A stretch of DNA of 46,573 nucleotides from a virus: the IMG/VR virus record IMGVR_UViG_3300033148_006358, positions 1 through 46,573 of that record; one strand, 5' to 3'. The notes under the pieces are model-generated. The model worked only from the letters and a program-made list of their open reading frames with translations. It made no database searches and was not told where the DNA came from. How positions within the stretch are numbered: position 1 is the stretch's first letter; the number at the start of each line of letters is the position of its first letter. Below, piece after piece: positions 10,772 to 35,616 of this stretch. Both the position numbers and the translations under genes were made by a program.

Positions 10772-11656
10772 ATGTATCCAATAGGTTTTGAAGAAGTTGT
10801 CAAGAAACACGGGACTACAGAGAAATTTTTATCAAGATACTACAGGGTGGCACCAAGAACCGTGCGTTTTTGGAACGCTTTATTAAGAGCACAAGATAAA
10901 CCGTTTCAGCCATCCAAAACGCTTATTGTTTGTGATCCCCATACGTATTATGAGGATGATGACCTTGTAAGGTTTATTTACCTTAATAAGTTTATCAAGG
11001 ATTGGAAGCCCGACGTGTTTATCCTTAATGGCGATCTTGAAAACTTGGACAGCATATCTAAATACAATGAAGATCAAAATTTAACAAAAGAAAATTTTCG
11101 TTTTCGTTATGAAAAAGATATTTACGCTGCAAACAGGGCGTTGGATTTAATATTAAAAGACATTGACAAAAACATAGTTAAGATATTTATAGAAGGCAAC
11201 CACGAAGATAGAATTCATAGATATGTAGAAAAACGTCCAGAGATGAGCGGGTTTGTTGATCTTGTTAAAGATTTTCGTATCAACGAGAGATTTAATGAGT
11301 TTGTTCCTTATAGAAAGTTCTATCACATACAAGACATAATGGTAACACATGCCGTTATGAACAAGAAAAAAACTCCCATAGGCGGAGTATATGCCACAAA
11401 AACAATTTTAGAAAAGTGTAGTAAGAGTATTGTTTATGGACACACCCACGAGAAAGACTGCAGAGAGTTAAAAAGATTTGGCGCACCTGTTATATACGGC
11501 GTTTGTGGAGGTTGCTTCTTCCGTCATACCCATAAGTATTCAGAAGACACCCCAAGGGCTGAGTGGGCGGGTATTGTCCTCGTAGAGCATACCAATCCCG
11601 ACCATTCAGAGTTTAATTTCAAGTCGTTGATGGAATTAGAGTCTATGTATAGTTGA
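10772..11656 (+). CDS. Calcineurin-like metallophosphoesterase
   Basis: A 294-residue protein after an AGGGAGG ribosome-binding site. It carries the ordered metal-binding motifs of the family: DPH (about residue 53), GDLEN (about 89), GNHED (about 146), a histidine in THA (about 190) and GHTH (about 222). The N-terminal 45 residues look like a helix-turn-helix (FLSRYYRVAPRTVRFWNAL) and may target nucleic acid. The likely reaction is hydrolysis of phosphomonoester or phosphodiester bonds with two metal ions; the substrate is unknown. It is the last gene of the plus-strand operon, before a bidirectional terminator. Confidence 0.88.
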   Translation: MYPIGFEEVVKKHGTTEKFLSRYYRVAPRTVRFWNALLRAQDKPFQPSKTLIVCDPHTYYEDDDLVRFIYLNKFIKDWKPDVFILNGDLENLDSISKYNEDQNLTKENFRFRYEKDIYAANRALDLILKDIDKNIVKIFIEGNHEDRIHRYVEKRPEMSGFVDLVKDFRINERFNEFVPYRKFYHIQDIMVTHAVMNKKKTPIGGVYATKTILEKCSKSIVYGHTHEKDCRELKRFGAPVIYGVCGGCFFRHTHKYSEDTPRAEWAGIVLVEHTNPDHSEFNFKSLMELESMYS

Positions 11657-11714
11657 TTAATAGTCGATTAGGCTTGTTGACAAAACGTCAAAACTTATTC
11701 ACATCTTTATACAA

Positions 11715-11770
11715 TTTAGTTAACAAAACCTCGGTATATGTTTATAACTACCGAGGTTTTGTTAACTAAA
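11715..11770. terminator. Bidirectional terminator between convergent transcripts
   Basis: A perfect 22-bp inverted repeat (11715-11736 and 11749-11770) with a 12-base loop. The stem contains CCTCGGTA/TACCGAGG flanked by A-runs on one side and T-runs on the other, so it can stop both the late plus-strand operon and the minus-strand RNA unit. Confidence 0.85.
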
Positions 11771-11825
11771 AATAGCACCTTATAGATGCTATTCAAAGGG
11801 TTTTCTCTTGGCGTTTCCTGCACAA

Positions 11826-11903
11826 TGGTGGTTACGGCTGGACTTGAACCAACATCTCCGAGCCATCGTTTGCTCGGTGTTTTACCAGTTAAACTACGCT
11901 GCC
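11826..11903 (-). tRNA. tRNA gene with unusual anticodon arm, isotype not assigned
   Basis: 78 bases including an encoded CCA. The D-arm (GTTT/AAAC with GG in the loop) and T-arm (GTTGG, loop TTCAAGT, CCAGC) are normal. The acceptor (GGCAGCG/CGTAACC) has two mismatches. The anticodon arm is odd: CCGAGC pairs with GCTCGG around an 8-base loop AAACGATG that has no U at the usual position 33, so no anticodon can be read with confidence. It lies four bases after the preceding tRNA-like element on the same transcript. It may be a degenerate tRNA, a frameshift-type tRNA or a decoy. Confidence 0.65.
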
Positions 11904-11907
11904 GTTT

Positions 11908-11987
11908 TGGTGGAGATTGTGGGAATCGAACCCACGTCCGCTTGGCACGCCTCACGTTTTTAACAAGCGTCTAAACCCTTAATCCCC
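11908..11987 (-). ncRNA. tRNA/tmRNA-like element with alanine-type acceptor
   Basis: 80 bases ending in CCA. The acceptor is GGGGATT/AATCTCC, seven pairs with a G3-U70 wobble and discriminator A, the alanine identity set shared by tRNA-Ala and tmRNA. The T-arm (GTGGG, TTCGATT, CCCAC) is perfect and is preceded by CGGAC, as in tmRNA 3' ends. There is no normal D-arm or anticodon arm. Instead CGCTTG/CAAGCG closes a 19-base loop where tmRNA has helix P2, and GGGTTTAGACG resembles the tmRNA D-loop region. No tag reading frame is visible. I read it as a minimal tmRNA-like or degenerate tRNA molecule. Confidence 0.55.
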
Positions 11988-11993
11988 ATTTAT

Positions 11994-12049
11994 GCTCCCC
12001 TATTCTGGATGTCCCAGACAGACCACCATACGGTGAATGTTCGGGGAGC
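11994..12049 (-). ncRNA. Folded RNA module (three-way junction) upstream of the tRNA-like genes
   Basis: On the minus strand GCTCCCC (12049-12043) pairs with GGGGAGC (12000-11994). The 42 bases between them form two hairpins, CACC-GTAT-GGTG and TCTGG-GACAT-CCAGA. The module begins about 40 bases after the predicted transcription start and ends six bases before the tRNA-like element. It contains no reading frame. It could be a processing signal, a tRNA relic or part of a larger tmRNA-like RNA. Confidence 0.45.
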
Positions 12050-12094
12050 AAGACACCACCAACCTGTTATTCAACATTAAAGTGGTTCTCTATT

Positions 12095-12123
12095 ATAATA
12101 TCACACATTTTCTCTTTTGTCAA
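12095..12123 (-). promoter_or_regulatory. Promoter of the tRNA-like RNA unit
   Basis: On the minus strand TTGACA (12123-12118), a 17-base spacer and TATTAT (12100-12095) followed directly by AAT. Predicted start near 12088. The unit downstream holds only the RNA modules and ends at the 11715-11770 terminator, so the RNAs have their own strong promoter. Confidence 0.8.
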
Positions 12124-24352: not shown

Positions 24353-24384
24353 CCCCCTTTCTGATTAATAAATGATTTATTCAT
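24328..24384 (-). pseudogene. 18-codon remnant related to the 27583-27885 gene
   Basis: ATG at 24384 overlaps the upstream TGA (ATGA) and encodes MNKSFINQKGG..., nearly the same as the start MYKSFINQKVG of the gene at 27885. The DNA around both starts is also similar. The frame ends after 18 codons, so this is a truncated copy that now at most serves translational coupling. Confidence 0.4.
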
Positions 24385-24662
24385 TCCCCCTCCTGAAAAA
24401 TTTCGCTAATTATGCTTTCCAAGTCGGACATACTCATGTCCTTTATTCTAATTTCGCAACAGTCATCGGTTTCGATAACGCCATCTTCAATCGAAATAAT
24501 CTCACCTGCCATAAAACCATTACCATACATCACAAATCGTTCGTTTTTTATGAGTTTTTGGCAGTTCTCTTCGCTTTCTATAAACTCGTAAAGAAAATCA
24601 ACCATTTCTTTTCGAAACCTTTCTGTGGCTTTCCACTTTTTGTCAAATTGTTTCTTCGTCAT
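24381..24662 (-). CDS. Early protein, paralogue of the 25861-26136 product
   Basis: 93 residues beginning MTKKQF. The C-terminal pattern (EIRIKDMSMSDLESIISEIF) and the N-terminal MTKK...E...FIE match the product at 25861-26136, so the two paralogues flank the sliding-clamp gene on both sides and both overlap it by four bases. They may act with the clamp. Confidence 0.7.
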   Translation of the reverse strand: MTKKQFDKKWKATERFRKEMVDFLYEFIESEENCQKLIKNERFVMYGNGFMAGEIISIEDGVIETDDCCEIRIKDMSMSDLESIISEIFQEGE

Positions 24663-25864: not shown

Positions 25865-26136
25865 TTTTCCTCCTTACATTCTGTTATAAGGATTTTTAAA
25901 TCACTTATGCTTAAATCCCTAACGTTAACAATTTGACCGCCTGACAAATCTATGTTGCCATCGGAATCAATGGAATGGACAACAGAATCATAAAATTCAC
26001 TGCCACCGTTAAGATATATATGCTTATGCTGTGTTATCGTCTTACAAAAACCCTTGTTTTCAATAAAACCCACAACGTATTCAATCATTTTCTCTTTAAC
26101 CTTCTCTAAATCTTTATAAATTTCTTTTTTTGTCAT
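25861..26136 (-). CDS. Early protein, paralogue of the 24381-24662 product
   Basis: 91 residues, ATG at 26136 after TTAGGAGGAAATT. MTKKEIYKDLEKVKEKM, then IVNVRDLSISDLKILITE, match the 24381-24662 protein. The start lies just inside the 40-base repeated leader that carries a hairpin before the ribosome-binding site. Coupled to the clamp gene (ATGA). Confidence 0.7.
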   Translation of the reverse strand: MTKKEIYKDLEKVKEKMIEYVVGFIENKGFCKTITQHKHIYLNGGSEFYDSVVHSIDSDGNIDLSGGQIVNVRDLSISDLKILITECKEEK

Positions 26137-26175
26137 AATTTCCTCCTAATAATTCTGTCTGCCCGCACAGGCGGG
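26136..26175 (-). repeat. 40-bp repeated leader, copy 1
   Basis: Identical to 26513-26552. On the minus strand it holds a CCCGC-CTGT-GCGGG hairpin, a short A/T spacer and the ribosome-binding site AGGAGGAAATTA. Both copies lie directly before a start codon, so the hairpin may tune initiation or protect the mRNA end. Confidence 0.8.
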
Positions 26176-26221
26176 TCTTGAAAAGTTAAGGCAGACCTCG
26201 CAAGAAGCCTGTCTGTGAATT

Positions 26222-26512: not shown

Positions 26513-26552
26513 TAATTTCCTCCTAATAATTCTGTCTGCCCGCACAGGCGGG
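26513..26552 (-). repeat. 40-bp repeated leader, copy 2
   Basis: Exact second copy of the hairpin plus ribosome-binding-site leader found at 26136-26175. A related GC-rich inverted repeat (CCGCCTG...CAGGCGG) occurs in the terS leader near 33299-33322. Confidence 0.8.
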
Positions 26553-26818
26553 ACTTTGAAAGTAACTTCTCATCGGCACTTCCAGCCGTTAAAAAACAAA
26601 GTAAAAATCCAATAAGTCAAGCCATTGTCAGAGAGAGAGAGAATAAGTTGAATTAAATTCCCTGAAGATACCCCACTATAGTTATTATATATATATATAT
26701 ACTATAATAAGGTGTATATACACGATCTTGTCTTATTCTTATTCTTCTCAGATCCTATATATATACCCTCTCTCTCTCTCTATATATTATAAGATTAGAT
26801 CATGTATTATTATATAAA
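26553..26818. other. AT-rich, low-complexity noncoding region; candidate replication origin
   Basis: No reading frame. It contains a GA run at 26631-26642 and a matching CT run at about 26768-26781 (able to pair across 125 bases), a TA run at about 26686-26702, the 12-bp palindrome GTGTATATACAC at 26712-26723, and several smaller inverted repeats. This is the most easily melted stretch of the early region and lies close to the clamp gene, so an origin is plausible, but no iterons or DnaA boxes are obvious. Confidence 0.4.
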
Positions 26819-27586: not shown

Positions 27587-27885
27587 TCTGCCTCCTCAAA
27601 GCCAAACTCCTTCAGTTTGTCAGTCGCCTGCAGTTCACTCAATGCGAACTTAACATCTTTTGCCTGTAATTTGCCGTAGAACCTGCCAACGCTGACATAC
27701 AGGTTAGTGTAACCGTTTTTAGTCATGATTTTACTTATAGCGGCTTCTCCGCCATAGATGCCCTGATAAATAATTGAATGTGCTTTGAATTCCCCATCAA
27801 ACCAGATCAACTGAAAATACTCTCCAGTGCAACCCATCTTTCCCGACGTGTAGCCCACCTTCTGATTGATAAATGATTTATACAT
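27583..27885 (-). CDS. Hypothetical early protein (100 residues)
   Basis: ATG at 27885 after AAAGGAGGAAAGAAA; the extension to 27945 is rejected. MYKSFINQKVGY is shared with the truncated copy at 24384. It contains aromatic strand segments (EYFQLIWFDGEF) and a helical end. No family recognised. Confidence 0.7.
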   Translation of the reverse strand: MYKSFINQKVGYTSGKMGCTGEYFQLIWFDGEFKAHSIIYQGIYGGEAAISKIMTKNGYTNLYVSVGRFYGKLQAKDVKFALSELQATDKLKEFGFEEAE

Positions 27886-27932
27886 TTTCTTTCCTCCTTT
27901 TTTTTCAAAGCCCCACAAAACCGCTTCCACTT

Positions 27933-28184
27933 TTAAGTAATCCATTCAAGCCCATCGGGAATATTATTTCTATAATAATCAAAACAATGGGTTCCGTCTC
28001 GGTATTTCCAACTTTTGGCTTCAGCGTTGGAAATAATTTCTGCGGGGCAGTAACTTGTTATATTTCCCCCTTGTGCTTTTACTTTCGAGTGTATTTTTTC
28101 GATCCAATTTCCACATTCTTTTTTAGTCCCAGGTCCGAAAGTTTCAAAGTTTCCTGATCCTGGTATATTTATATGTGCAAACAT
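27933..28184 (-). CDS. Hypothetical first early protein (83 residues)
   Basis: First gene after the 28.2-kb promoter, ATG at 28184 after GGAGGTTAGAA. Mixed composition with three cysteines and many aromatics (KSWKYRDGTHCFDYYRNN). First genes of early phage operons often act on the host, but no family is recognised here. Confidence 0.7.
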   Translation of the reverse strand: MFAHINIPGSGNFETFGPGTKKECGNWIEKIHSKVKAQGGNITSYCPAEIISNAEAKSWKYRDGTHCFDYYRNNIPDGLEWIT

Positions 28185-28214
28185 TTCTAACCTCCTGTTT
28201 TTATTTTATGACTC

Positions 28215-28243
28215 ATTATAGCACACTTTCTATTTTATGTCAA
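28215..28243 (-). promoter_or_regulatory. Main early promoter at 28.2 kb
   Basis: On the minus strand TTGACA (28243-28238), a 17-base spacer ending GTGTGC, and TATAAT (28220-28215). The TGTGC before the -10 box is close to that of the 23.6-kb promoter, giving an extended -10 character. Confidence 0.9.
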
Positions 28244-28249
28244 GAACAT

Positions 28250-28870
28250 GTTAAAAATAAATGTAAACCCGATGAATACTACGGAAGAACAGAATACATC
28301 ATAAATGATGTGTAAAAAACACGTTTTAAAAGAGGAAATCTAACGGCTTGAATCCTGCGGCATGGGATGATTCTGCCTAAAAGGAATTTCAACGGCTTAA
28401 AAATGAAATTAGGGGTGTTAGAGACGATTCTAAGCAAGGAGACGACCTCCGAAATAAACACCTGTTTTAACATACAAAAGTCATATCTTTTGTTAAAAGT
28501 GATAGAAACGTAGTGTTTGCAACGTTCAACCAATTTGTTAACGTCAACAAAAAGGTATATTTCAACGGCATGTTGAAAGTGTAAAAAAGTGAACTCATCG
28601 AGTTTTTCGAATAGTTGGTTGAGTAAAAATAAAATGTAGAATGTGATAAAAGTCATATTGTTTGGGTTGTGAGTGTGGTATTGTAAGGATAGAATCCTAT
28701 ATAAATCATACGTTAGTGATTCAGCAGGGTTTTCGCTGTTGATGGGTGGCAACCCATCTAGTGTTGTTATGTCCAGGCATGGACAACTAACAAGGCGGAG
28801 TTTTAATATTACCTTGCGGCACGGCTAAGAAAGACTACGGGTTGATCGCCTGTAGTCTTTTGCTTTTCGG
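28250..28870 (+). ncRNA. Candidate large structured noncoding RNA (about 600 nt)
   Basis: No plausible coding frame with a ribosome-binding site exists on either strand, yet the region is dense in helices. Examples on the plus strand: ACATCAT/ATGATGT (near 28295-28312), AATTTCA/TGAAATT (28385-28410), a junction closed by GGTGTT (28414) and AACACC (28457) around two hairpins, ACAAAAG-TCATAT-CTTTTGT (28474-28493), TTTCAAC-GGCAT-GTTGAAA (28560-28578), AGGAT/ATCCT (near 28686), GATGGGT-GGCA-ACCCATC (28741-28758), CAAGG/CCTTG (near 28791-28815). AACGGC occurs three times. It ends in a strong plus-strand terminator that faces a minus-strand terminator. Size and phage setting recall ROOL/GOLLD-class RNAs; I cannot confirm membership. 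The 5' end and promoter were not located. Confidence 0.6.
28830..28867 (+). terminator. Plus-strand terminator of the structured RNA
   Basis: AAAGACTACGGG (28830-28841), 7-base loop, CCTGTAGTCTTT (28849-28860) with one G-U pair, then TGCTTTT. No plus-strand gene lies upstream for over 600 bases, so it must end a noncoding transcript. Confidence 0.82.
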
Positions 28871-28886
28871 TTAAACATCCCCGAAA

Positions 28887-28918
28887 TGAAAAAGCCCCTG
28901 CCTTATGCGGCGGAGGCT
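28887..28918 (-). terminator. Minus-strand terminator facing the structured RNA
   Basis: On the minus strand AGCCTCCGCC, loop GCATAA, GGCAGGGGCT with one mismatch, then TTTTTC. It closes the single-gene transcript from 29208. Confidence 0.8.
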
Positions 28919-28977
28919 TAATCGAATATGGCATGACCCTCACCTTCTTTTTTCCTTTTCTTCCTTCCACGTGGCTT

Positions 28978-29208
28978 TCAGTTCCACATCGCACTTACAA
29001 TGTCGTTTGCCACGCCAAGCGGCGTGAGCGGCTTTCCTTCTTCGTCCTCTGTCAGGTTCCATCTTTCGATAGCGTTATTATTTAGCTCGTTTGTAGCAGA
29101 AGGGTTTCCGCAGGTGCCGTTCGGGTCGTTCGCCCACTTCTTCGCAAGGGTAAGACCTCTTACAATTGCTTCATAGCGATCGAATTTACCTTGATTTGTT
29201 GATCTCAT
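28978..29208 (-). CDS. Small early protein transcribed alone (76 residues)
   Basis: ATG at 29208 after AAGGGAGGAAAA, with its own promoter and terminator. Helical N-terminus (FDRYEAIVRGLTLAKKWAND) and a hydrophilic centre. Single-gene transcription close to the left/right divergence suggests a regulator or immediate-early host takeover protein, but no family is recognised. Confidence 0.72.
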   Translation of the reverse strand: MRSTNQGKFDRYEAIVRGLTLAKKWANDPNGTCGNPSATNELNNNAIERWNLTEDEEGKPLTPLGVANDIVSAMWN

Positions 29209-29238
29209 TTTTCCTCCCTTGATATTCTTTCTGTATTC

Positions 29239-29267
29239 AGTATAACACACATCCTCCCGTTTGTCAA
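29239..29267 (-). promoter_or_regulatory. Promoter of the 28978-29208 gene
   Basis: On the minus strand TTGACA (29267-29262), a 17-base spacer ending TGTGTGT, and TATACT (29244-29239). Confidence 0.85.
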
Positions 29268-29289
29268 GCATTTTATAAAGATAATTCAA

Positions 29290-29702
29290 ATAAAGATAAT
29301 ATAACTGAACACGCCAGAAGCACGCTGAAGCCTACGCCTGAAACAGGCTAATATCACACCATAATACACATAACGCCTGAATCCCGCTTATTCAGAATGT
29401 ATGATATACTCTATACCCCCGCCTGAAGGCTTGAATCATACATCATGGACATAAACTACCCCCATTCTTGGCTTGTTTTGGGACTTTTGATACATTCACG
29501 GCGGACACGGGCGCGCTCGTTCTCGGATGAGGATAGGAAAACATACGCATACATCACGGACATACGCACCCCCCTACACCCCCTTTTGCTGTTAGACCTA
29601 TATACACATGCCGCTCCGTCAAATTTATTCGGTTTTAAAGTCCGCCAAAAAGGGTTTAATTTAATTCAATTCGAATAGTCAAGGAATATTTGATGATTGA
29701 AC
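29290..29702. other. Noncoding divergent region with short repeats
   Basis: No gene with a ribosome-binding site is visible. The 17-base element CATACATCATGGACATA at 29437 recurs with one change at 29549. ATGTATGAT near 29397 and ATCATACAT near 29435 form an inverted repeat, and CGCCTGAA occurs three times (about 29334, 29373, 29420). The region separates leftward early and rightward transcription, so these may be regulator-binding sites or an origin. Confidence 0.45.
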
Positions 29703-29731
29703 TTGACAACGTGTTGTTTTTATGGTATTAT
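29703..29731 (+). promoter_or_regulatory. Rightward promoter at 29.7 kb
   Basis: TTGACA at 29703-29708, 17 bases, TATTAT at 29726-29731, 16 bases before the chosen start of the next gene. Confidence 0.85.
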
Positions 29732-29746
29732 AGTGTTGGGGTATTT

Positions 29747-30100
29747 ATGAATAATATGAAGGGCAGAGAGGTTTGGAATGTTGAAGGGTTAGTGCCTACG
29801 TGGGGTGATGAAGATATAGTTAAGCATTTTAGTGATATTGAAATCATACAAACAATGCTTGACAATCCTGATGAATACAAATGGAGTAAGCATGAATTTA
29901 AAGCACTAAAAGGAATTCTCGATCTTTTAATTAGGCATAAAAAAGGTGCGATAGAAAGTCCGATTAGTAGAGATTTTGATGTTGATATGGGAATGGACAA
30001 AGAAGATTTTGTAAATGGAACTATTTATAAATATAGAACAATATTCTTTTTATTTATACGTGTAAATTGGAAAACTATGATTTACAGAATAAAATTTTGA
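29747..30100 (+). CDS. Hypothetical early protein (117 residues)
   Basis: The start is taken at the ATG at 29747, because the promoter -10 box lies inside the longer frame. Ribosome-binding site is weak (GGGG). Mostly helical and charged; hydrophobic end (RTIFFLFIRVNW). First gene of the rightward modification/metabolism unit. No family recognised. Confidence 0.65.
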   Translation: MNNMKGREVWNVEGLVPTWGDEDIVKHFSDIEIIQTMLDNPDEYKWSKHEFKALKGILDLLIRHKKGAIESPISRDFDVDMGMDKEDFVNGTIYKYRTIFFLFIRVNWKTMIYRIKF

Positions 30101-33824: not shown

Positions 33825-34514
33825 ATGACAACAGAGGAAAAAGAAAGAACAAGGGCGATTAATCGCTATAACCTCAATGTTGCATGTGGTGATGAAAAGC
33901 GTGCCGCTTTAGAGTGGGAGTTATGTAAGAGGGATCCATGGCATTGGATATATAATTGGGTGTGGACGTTAGACACACATGACAAAAAGTGTCCAAAGAA
34001 ATGGTTTCCCGACAAAGAATATATCAAGAGATTTGTGGAGGTTTACCAAAAAGAAGATTTGTTGTTGGTTCCAAAATCAAGGCAAATGATGTTGACGTGG
34101 ATATGTGTATCATTATTCTTACATGAAGCAATCTTTAATAACGGGCGTTATCTGTTCATGATTTCCAAGAAGGAAAAAGACGCCGACGATCTGGTTCAAA
34201 AGAGAATAAAATACATATACGACCAATTGCCAAAGTTTATGCAACCAAAAGTAGTTTTTACTTTTTGTAATGCAAATTTCCCCGACAATAATTGTGTTAT
34301 ACATGGTTTTCCTCAAGGGGCAGACCAAATTCGTTCGCAAACAGCATCGACGGTTTTGGTGGACGAGGCTGCGTTTCAGCCAGAAGCGGAGTCAACGTAT
34401 GAGGCGATTAAACCGTCAATTGATGGCGGGGGTAAGATTATAATGATTTCATCGGCGAACCCAGGTTTCTTTGAGAGGCTGGTGAACGATAAAACGGAAA
34501 TGGCTGACAAATAA
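33825..34514 (+). CDS. terL: Terminase large subunit, ATPase half
   Basis: 229 residues after a GGGGTG site. It holds the packaging motor motifs: a Walker A-type LLLVPKSRQMMLTW (about residues 79-92), Walker B STVLVDEAAF (about 174-183) and the coupling motif IISMISSANPG-like segment (MISSANPGFF, about 206-215). It stops at residue 229, just where a normal TerL would pass into the nuclease domain. The nuclease half is a separate ORF at 34783, after an unrelated 91-residue ORF. Together the halves total about 506 residues, a normal TerL length. Confidence 0.88.
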   Translation: MTTEEKERTRAINRYNLNVACGDEKRAALEWELCKRDPWHWIYNWVWTLDTHDKKCPKKWFPDKEYIKRFVEVYQKEDLLLVPKSRQMMLTWICVSLFLHEAIFNNGRYLFMISKKEKDADDLVQKRIKYIYDQLPKFMQPKVVFTFCNANFPDNNCVIHGFPQGADQIRSQTASTVLVDEAAFQPEAESTYEAIKPSIDGGGKIIMISSANPGFFERLVNDKTEMADK

Positions 34515-34523
34515 GGGGGCGTG

Positions 34524-34799
34524 ATGGATTTCTCTAAAGATGATGCTGTAGATGCTTTTAGCGAAATTGTTGACATTGCAAAAAACAAACAAAGAGCAAA
34601 ACAAGCAATAGATGGATACAAACCAACGTTCAACGGAATTATAATTGTGTATGAAAGCGATGATAAAGATGTTGGTTTCCATTTTATAAACAGTAATTTC
34701 GCCTCGGCAAGACAATCTCTGTTGAGAGCAGCAGATATATTTCTTAAAACAGAGATGAAAGAAGAATTATACGGAGAACTCGATGAAGGGAATCTATGA
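34524..34799 (+). CDS. Small ORF inserted between the two terminase halves
   Basis: 91 residues from the ATG at 34524, behind AAGGGGGCG. Helical N-terminus, a two-strand centre (FNGIIIVYESDDKDVGFHFI) and a helical end (ARQSLLRAADIFLKTEM). It is not a recognisable homing endonuclease, and the coding frame fills the whole gap, leaving little room for an intron. It resembles small accessory proteins of phage operons. Its end overlaps the nuclease-half start by 17 bases. Confidence 0.75.
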   Translation: MDFSKDDAVDAFSEIVDIAKNKQRAKQAIDGYKPTFNGIIIVYESDDKDVGFHFINSNFASARQSLLRAADIFLKTEMKEELYGELDEGNL

Positions 34800-35616
34800 G
34801 AGAAAGAACAAAAACGGCTTTTATGTGTTTAGGATACACTACTCGGCTGATCCCGACAAAGATCCCGACACAAAGCAGGGTAAGGTATGGTATGATAAAG
34901 TCCGCAAGGGAATGATGGATAAATCATGGCAGAAGGAATACGAGATTGACTGGTTCGCAAAATCGGGAGAACTCGTTTATCCGATGTTTGATCCTTCCGT
35001 TCATGTAGTTCAACCCTTCGCAATACCAAAGAGTTGGACACGGTATATGGCATTAGACCCTGGTTTAAGGAATCCGACGGCGGCGTTATGGGCGGCGGTT
35101 GATCCTGATGATAATATATATTTCTATCGGGAATACTACAAAGCGGAGATGACACCGAAAGAACATGCCGTTGTAATAAAGGAGTTAGAAAAAGGGGAAA
35201 AGATATTTGTAAGACTCATCGATCCTGCGGCACGTGGCAGGGATATGACAACAAAGAAGTCGGTGAGCGAGTCTTACGCCGAAAATAAACTGTTTTTTAT
35301 CGAGGCAAACAACAAGGTTGAACTCGGTATATCGAAAGTTCAAGAAGCAATGAAAATCGGCAAGACAGGTCCAAGGATGTATGTATTCAGCACGTTGAGA
35401 AATTACATACAAGAAAAGAGTGAATATAGGTGGCATCAGGAAACCGAAACGGTTTTAAGGCAAAAAGATCCGACTGAGAAGCCGATAAAGAAACGAGATC
35501 ACCTTATGGACTGCGAAAGATATATAATAGTGGCTAATCCGCACTATAGGCGGATATACGGGTTTAAGAAAAACAAGGACATTCATGTTTGGGATGGAAT
35601 GTCAACGGGGTATTAA
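34783..35616 (+). CDS. terL: Terminase large subunit, nuclease half
   Basis: 277 residues with its own GGAG site 6 bases before the ATG. It begins in the linker region (FYVFRIHYSADPDKDP) and carries the RNase H-like nuclease motifs: MALDPGLRNPTAALW (first Asp), VRLIDPAARG (second Asp) and RDHLMDCERYIIV (last Asp). All catalytic aspartates are present. It must act with the ATPase half at 33825, either as a two-chain motor or after fusion of the transcripts. Confidence 0.88.
   Translation: MKGIYERKNKNGFYVFRIHYSADPDKDPDTKQGKVWYDKVRKGMMDKSWQKEYEIDWFAKSGELVYPMFDPSVHVVQPFAIPKSWTRYMALDPGLRNPTAALWAAVDPDDNIYFYREYYKAEMTPKEHAVVIKELEKGEKIFVRLIDPAARGRDMTTKKSVSESYAENKLFFIEANNKVELGISKVQEAMKIGKTGPRMYVFSTLRNYIQEKSEYRWHQETETVLRQKDPTEKPIKKRDHLMDCERYIIVANPHYRRIYGFKKNKDIHVWDGMSTGY

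What the first reader, a model, noticed from the sequence alone, without database searches (positions are those of the whole stretch)
28250..28870. Large structured noncoding RNA candidate on the plus strand
About 600 bases without a credible gene contain at least a dozen perfect or near-perfect hairpins and one clear multi-branch junction. They end in a strong plus-strand terminator, although no plus-strand gene lies upstream. A second terminator in the opposite direction sits 20 bases further on, which shows that a separate rightward transcript ends here. The AACGGC loop-type motif occurs three times (28342, 28391, 28564), which could mean repeated tertiary contacts. Size and phage context are those of ornate RNAs such as ROOL and GOLLD, but I see no proof of membership, so it could be a new class.
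Basis: partly seen in the sequence, partly recalled or inferred. Interest (0 to 1): 0.88.

Follow-up and report, generated by a model that had tools for sequence, protein, structure and literature searches.

The report
Orphan structured RNA candidate in phage
A 600-base stretch of a virus of bacteria has no convincing gene, is unusually rich in hairpins and ends in a transcription stop signal, so it probably makes a structured RNA, but no relative was found, so neither its true length nor its function can be shown.

Summary
The anatomy is largely real. 28250-28870 holds no convincing gene and 12 perfect hairpins of at least 5 bp (shuffles mean 4.5, 0 of 200 reach 12; at most 11 in 448 other tiles). 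It ends in a 14-bp plus-strand terminator facing a minus-strand one. Strand composition and G-U pairing favour the plus strand. No Rfam family matches; the ROOL model, tested directly, does not match the region. Weaknesses: no homologue except an identical contig of the same phage, so no covariation; no good plus promoter; folding energy only ranks 6 of 150 in this genome and is concentrated in about 28630-28861; the 17-bp closing helix of the 3' domain is stable in short transcripts but not in the 600-nt one; the AACGGC repeat is unexceptional. Two coding signals remain unexplained: gene-like codon phase in a plus frame broken by stops (28310-28610) and a 181-codon stop-free minus frame; neither has a protein relative. 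Best reading: an orphan plus-strand structured phage RNA with a 3' core at 28630-28861; whether it extends to 28250 is open. A ROOL/GOLLD-like role is speculation. A tagless mini-tmRNA elsewhere in the window may deserve its own look.

The parts
28208..28236 (+). best plus-strand sigma-70-like site near the proposed 5' end (ATGACT-17-TATTTT), overlapping the leftward promoter; weak
   Evidence: score 7.57 with recalled consensus weights, reached by 0.3% of all positions
28215..28243 (-). perfect TTGACA-17-TATAAT promoter-like site for the leftward ORFs, at the 5' border of the candidate RNA
28274..28518 (+). proposed domain I, closed by 10-bp helix 28274-28283/28509-28518; low confidence
   Evidence: pair probability 0.87 in the full-length fold; z -2.4 for 28268-28522
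28525..28624 (+). proposed domain II, four-way junction closed by TCAACCAA/TTGGTTGA with three hairpins
   Evidence: helix probability 0.91; z -2.1 for 28520-28628
28640..28659 (+). linker hairpin, 8 bp
   Evidence: pair probability 0.97
28666..28820 (+). domain III: five hairpins (two with GGCA tetraloops), enclosed by a 17-bp helix with one bulge and 7 G-U pairs
   Evidence: z -4.0 for 28630-28826; structure; 17 bp on plus versus 9 bp on minus, 3 of 150 shuffles reach 17; closing helix p 0.82-0.90 in pieces starting at 28525 or later but 0.10-0.48 full length, inner pairs 0.80-0.90 throughout
28829..28861 (+). intrinsic terminator of the plus-strand transcript
   Evidence: 14 pairs plus U-rich tail; -19.1 kcal/mol
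28888..28919 (-). opposing terminator-like hairpin with T run, for the minus-strand ORF 29211-28978
   Evidence: sequence and fold -21.7 kcal/mol; not listed by the scan
28279..28752 (-). 157-aa TTG-start open frame inside a 181-codon stop-free run; probably not a gene
   Evidence: no PHROGs family at E <= 0.001 (best E 0.041), no Pfam hit, no relative but itself
28310..28610 (+). stretch where one plus frame, broken by stops, has gene-like codon phase (possible decayed gene)

Best explanation
The region is the gene of an orphan noncoding RNA of this phage, read on the plus strand and ended by the intrinsic terminator at 28829-28861. Its best-supported part is about 28630-28861: a linker hairpin, a five-hairpin domain that can close into a six-way junction by a long G-U-rich helix, and the terminator. 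Two less certain domains upstream (28274-28518, 28525-28624) would make it up to about 600 nt long, starting close to the leftward promoter. It works as folded RNA, not as message. The most likely role, inferred only from kind and place, is that of a structural or binding RNA made during infection, divergently from the leftward ORFs. Shown: hairpin excess, strand-specific helix potential, terminator, lack of a recognisable protein. Inferred: transcription, 5' end, upstream domains, and any function.
For: 12 perfect hairpins versus 4.5 expected, 0 of 200 shuffles, unmatched in 448 other tiles. With G-U allowed and 6 bp or more, 15 on plus (shuffles 8.8, P 0.005) versus 9 on minus (P 0.11). 17-bp helix on plus, 9 bp at best on minus. 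z -5.6 for the whole, -4.0 for 28630-28826. Plus-strand terminator without a family-matched plus ORF upstream back to 11656. Plus purine fraction 0.567 and GC skew +0.22, like the coding strands of all 25 ORFs measured, while the flanking stretches measured have the opposite sign. Three hairpin loops share GGCA (20 of 2000 shuffles reach three).
Against: Energy rank 6 of 150 in this genome; the complement also folds well, z -4.8. The 5' part is ordinary at 150-nt scale (z -1.6 for 28250-28625). Hairpins of 7 bp or more with G-U are not significantly enriched (7 versus 4.3, P 0.065). The closing helix is weak in the full-length RNA. No plus promoter comparable to the best sites of the window. 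Codon-phase signal in a broken plus frame, P 0.016. Long stop-free minus frame, 2 of 3000 shuffles.
Confidence: 0.48

Rival explanations
1. Short RNA only: the transcript is about 160-230 nt (start between about 28640 and 28702) and the upstream 380 nt are spacer or promoter region.
For: Plus energy signal lies in windows starting at 28576 or later; z -4.2 for 28625-28826 against -1.6 for 28250-28625; the domain III closing helix has p 0.90 in 28640-28865 but 0.10-0.48 in the 600-nt RNA. The best plus promoter-like site of 28050-28900 is TTGTGA-17-TAGAAT at 28667-28695.
Against: That promoter lies inside the 5' strand of the closing helix, so both cannot be used together; hairpin excess is also present upstream (8 versus 2.9 expected in 28250-28625, P 0.001); plus-like composition runs through the 5' half.
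Confidence: 0.22
2. Decayed plus-strand gene: 28310-28610 is the remnant of a rightward coding gene, and the terminator is its leftover.
For: The frame beginning at 28252 is the best plus frame (tied once, at 28670) in the 120-nt windows starting from 28280 to 28700. Its 240-nt windows starting at 28310, 28370 and 28430 score 0.11, 0.05 and 0.02, above the 5% quantile of real genes (0.011) though below their mean 0.16; best window P 0.016 in shuffles. Gene-like strand composition. One 27-nt near match, in the same reading phase, to an open coding stretch in a MAG, E 0.012.
Against: Three to five stops in each of those windows; no Pfam hit, best PHROGs E 0.15, best phage tblastn E 5; frame spread over the whole region is ordinary (P 0.29); does not explain the hairpins.
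Confidence: 0.15
3. Untranscribed DNA element (operator, origin or insulating terminator region) between two leftward units.
For: Lies directly upstream of a perfect leftward promoter-like site; no good plus promoter.
Against: A DNA element has no need of strand-specific G-U pairing or of a plus-oriented terminator.
Confidence: 0.1
4. Minus-strand protein gene of 157 aa (28752-28279).
For: 181-codon stop-free run, 2 of 3000 shuffles; same direction as its neighbours. Its codon score, -0.12, is slightly above the reverse frames of the known genes printed (-0.14 and lower).
Against: That score is below all 20 reference genes (lowest 0.062) and below the small neighbour 29211-28978 (0.008); TTG start without a visible ribosome-binding site; none of the eight best minus promoter-like sites of 28050-28900 lies between it and 28870; no significant family; no relative.
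Confidence: 0.05

Closest known systems
ROOL RNA (Rfam RF03087)
   Same: About 600 nt if the long reading holds, multi-domain, phage context; the same genome has a tRNA-like cassette.
   Different: No match in the region: the only ROOL-model scores in the window are 8.6 and 7.5 bits elsewhere, cut-off 99.1; no hit in the region at E <= 5; not next to the tRNA-like genes. The search had no positive control (0 of 14 control genomes ring).
GOLLD RNA
   Same: Large structured RNA of phages and prophages, function unknown (PMC12286853, passages seen).
   Different: Many members exceed 800 nt by that paper; no Rfam match in the region at E <= 5.
OLE RNA
   Same: About 600 nt and highly structured (abstract starts in a search listing).
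   Different: No Rfam match in the region; found mostly in Gram-positive extremophiles and anaerobes by the same abstracts.

Membership tests
ROOL (RF03087) | score over the family's gathering cut-off (99.1 bits) | tested here: not met
   no match in 28250-28870; 8.6 and 7.5 bits elsewhere in the window (no positive control rang); cmscan at E <= 5 shows none
ROOL (RF03087) | phage or prophage location, often near tRNA islands | tested here: inconclusive
   phage yes (portal, capsid, terminase); nearest tRNA-like genes at 11826-12050, about 16 kb away
ROOL (RF03087) | homo-oligomeric nanocage with kissing loops | not testable with these tools
   feature taken from passages of PMC12286853; not predicted here
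GOLLD | covariance-model match | tested here: not met
   absent from the all-family cmscan of 28150-29000 at E <= 5 and of the window at gathering scores
OLE / HEARO / any other of 4227 Rfam families | covariance-model match | tested here: not met
   only IS009 (15.6 bits, cut-off 117) and DLEU2_4 (14.7 bits, cut-off 40, minus strand) appear at E <= 5, both far below cut-off
large structured noncoding RNA (general kind) | covarying helices across homologues | not testable with these tools
   no homologue found; the one other contig is 100% identical over the 11 kb compared
large structured noncoding RNA (general kind) | excess of strand-specific structure over composition-matched controls | tested here: met
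   but see energy rank and full-length pair probabilities
large structured noncoding RNA (general kind) | own transcription unit | tested here: inconclusive
   terminator yes, promoter weak, no expression data

The most novel reading that the evidence does not exclude
A new class of roughly 600-nt ornate phage RNA with three domains, unrelated in sequence to ROOL and GOLLD, made divergently from the leftward ORFs and assembling through loop contacts (three GGCA-capped hairpins; loops AACGU and ACGUU of domains II and III are complementary) into a homo-oligomeric particle.
Probability: 0.08. Interest if true: 0.85.

Novelty: new member of a known kind. Interest (0 to 1): 0.4.

Why it matters
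If transcribed, it would be a further structured phage RNA outside the Rfam families searched, adding to the puzzle of why phages carry such RNAs. As it stands it is a single sequence, useful mainly as a seed for searching phage metagenomes.

Tried and rejected
The genomes centre on the one behind L238, a host chosen by a mobile recombinase gene, so the true host is not known. The tool warns that an empty answer without a positive genome shows little. R3 was run on 88 and 8 sources only; its best other matches (19.6 bits on the window's minus strand; 16.5 and 13.7 bits in two loci) look like noise.

Considered and dropped: AACGGC as a tertiary motif (the three copies lie in different structural settings). 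Kissing of AACGU/ACGUU loops kept only as speculation, not tested. Alternative genetic code: not pursued.

Full report
What the window is. The window is a phage genome: SU10-type portal and adaptor, capsid, terminase, RecE, RecT and DnaC-like genes, and a clamp gene. Its two ends share a 114-bp direct repeat, so it is probably complete. A second contig, 24 kb long, is identical to it over the 11 kb compared. Other portal relatives are distant; the nearest found in the viral collection is 40% identical. Habitat and host are not known from any call.

The observation. The ORFs directly left of 28184 and the small ORF 29211-28978 run leftward, and the next rightward ORF is 29690-30100 (no gene caller was run). 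Between them 28250-28870 has no convincing gene. A perfect leftward promoter-like site at 28243-28215 borders it on the left. On the right a plus-strand terminator at 28829-28861 faces a minus-strand terminator-like hairpin at 28919-28888 (the scan did not list the second). The first folds at -19.1 kcal/mol as plus RNA and -12.2 as minus RNA. The last plus ORF upstream with a family match ends at 11656, so a plus transcript probably begins inside the region or antisense to the leftward ORFs; shorter plus ORFs in between were not examined.

Structure against controls. The whole region folds at -166.5 kcal/mol, z -5.6 with 20 shuffles; the complement also folds well, z -4.8. Against the genome itself, the plus strand ranks 6th of 150 windows of 621 nt (z -4.7, mean -1.3, sd 1.6), so energy alone is not proof. 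Hairpins are more telling: 12 perfect Watson-Crick hairpins of 5 bp or more, 4.5 expected, 0 of 200 shuffles; the other 448 tiles reach at most 11. With G-U allowed and at least 6 bp, plus has 15 (shuffles 8.8, P 0.005) and minus 9 (P 0.11); at 7 bp the excess is not significant (7 versus 4.3, P 0.065). Local energy is concentrated at the 3' end: plus 150-nt windows starting at 28576, 28651 and 28726 have z -3.7, -4.7 and -3.6, those starting from 28276 to 28501 between 0.04 and -1.3. Sub-pieces: 28630-28826 z -4.0, 28520-28628 z -2.1, 28268-28522 z -2.4.

Domain III. In 28630-28826 the best fold is a 17-bp helix with one bulge (28666-28683 with 28804-28820), 7 of 17 pairs G-U, around five hairpins. 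The longest comparable helix on the minus strand is 9 bp; 3 of 150 shuffles reach 17. Against it: the helix holds with mean probability 0.82-0.90 in four pieces that start at 28525 or later, but only 0.48 in 28250-28870 and 0.10 in 28246-28865; the five hairpins hold throughout (0.80-0.90). A piece starting at 28673 or 28684 also folds otherwise. So the domain as drawn fits a shorter RNA better than a 600-nt one. Three hairpin loops carry GGCA, reached by 20 of 2000 shuffles.

Strand. All 25 ORFs measured have purine-rich coding strands (0.51-0.63) with positive GC skew. The region on plus has 0.567 and +0.22, while 28185-28249, 28871-28977, 28978-29214 and 29215-29700 have negative skew and less than half purines on plus. 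That fits a plus transcript, but would also fit a decayed plus gene.

Coding tests. The minus frame has 181 codons without stop (2 of 3000 shuffles), but its codon score of -0.12 is below all 20 reference genes (lowest 0.062) and below the small neighbour ORF (0.008), and it lacks a visible ribosome-binding site. No family is significant and no relative was found except itself. One plus frame, with several stops, has gene-like codon phase over 28310-28610 (P 0.016). Its pieces match nothing (best PHROGs E 0.15, best phage tblastn E 5). A 27-nt near match in the same phase to an open frame in a MAG (E 0.012) may be chance. I keep a decayed gene as a rival at 0.15.

Promoter. The eight best promoter-like sites of the window score 14.7-16.6, mostly with TG before the second hexamer. 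The candidate's plus strand has none like them: 9.3 at 28667 (inside domain III) and 7.6 at 28208 (overlapping the leftward site) (weights recalled). This is the main gap in the transcription argument.

Known families. Rfam has nothing: the E <= 5 search of 28150-29000 gives two hits far below cut-off, and the ROOL model gives only 8.6 and 7.5 bits elsewhere (without a positive control). The gathering-score search does detect three small RNAs in this window, so the method works on this sequence. From the passages of PMC12286853 that I saw, ROOL and GOLLD are phage and prophage RNAs, often near tRNA islands, that form nanocages; the resemblance here is one of size and setting only. I searched the library for ROOL with GOLLD and for large phage RNAs and, apart from that paper, saw only listings.

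Homologues. None, in the searches listed in Tried and rejected. There is therefore no covariation test, and both 'new class' and any function stay open.

Verdict. A probable orphan structured RNA whose 3' core is the best-supported part; its length, expression and role are unproved.

Noticed in passing
11908-11987 (-): An 80-nt tmRNA-like RNA over Rfam's cut-off (58.9 bits) with 300 model positions, the mRNA-like part, replaced by 8 nt: tRNA-like half with CCA end, T arm and, by eye, a G3-U70 pair (alanine identity element, recalled). A second one of 81 nt with the same layout and also G3-U70 by eye, ending CTG, not CCA, is in a 69% GC virus contig without tblastx match to the window (L210:12398-12478, 70.1 bits). 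Possibly tagless mini-tmRNAs of phages. The pattern, which fits both, is in 0 of 391 genomes of one class. The phrase 'phage-encoded tmRNA' is in no paper of the library; a methylophage paper (PMC9004378, abstract start only) mentions tmRNA 34 times, so phage tmRNAs as such may be in print.
   Followed up: partly
11826-12123 (-): The mini-tmRNA is part of an RNA cassette: promoter-like site at 12123, DUF3800-IX RNA (11989-12050, 39.9 bits), the mini-tmRNA, then a tRNA-like gene with an 8-nt anticodon loop by eye (ARAGORN: four-base anticodon acga).
   Followed up: partly
11701-11776: Very long near-perfect hairpin (150-nt window z -8.5 on plus, -7.1 on minus) between convergent units, probably a two-way terminator.
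   Followed up: no
33825-35616 (+): Terminase large subunit split over two ORFs (33825-34514 and 34783-35616, matching different parts of phrog_2) with a small ORF 34521-34799 between.
   Followed up: no
26136-26186 and 26513-26563: 51-nt direct repeat, 94% identical; also a 33-nt repeat at 24353-24385 and 27854-27886, 88%.
   Followed up: no
29215-29700: Second long intergenic stretch with CGCCTGAA three times (29335, 29374, 29420), between divergent promoter-like sites.
   Followed up: no
L128:5124-5180, L132:5079-5135, L126:1112-1179, L175:9081-9148: Other virus contigs carry an element with AACGGCTTT, GTGGTATAAATACCCA and AAAACGGCTT, not covered or barely covered by an open frame, with no alignment to this RNA.
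   Followed up: no
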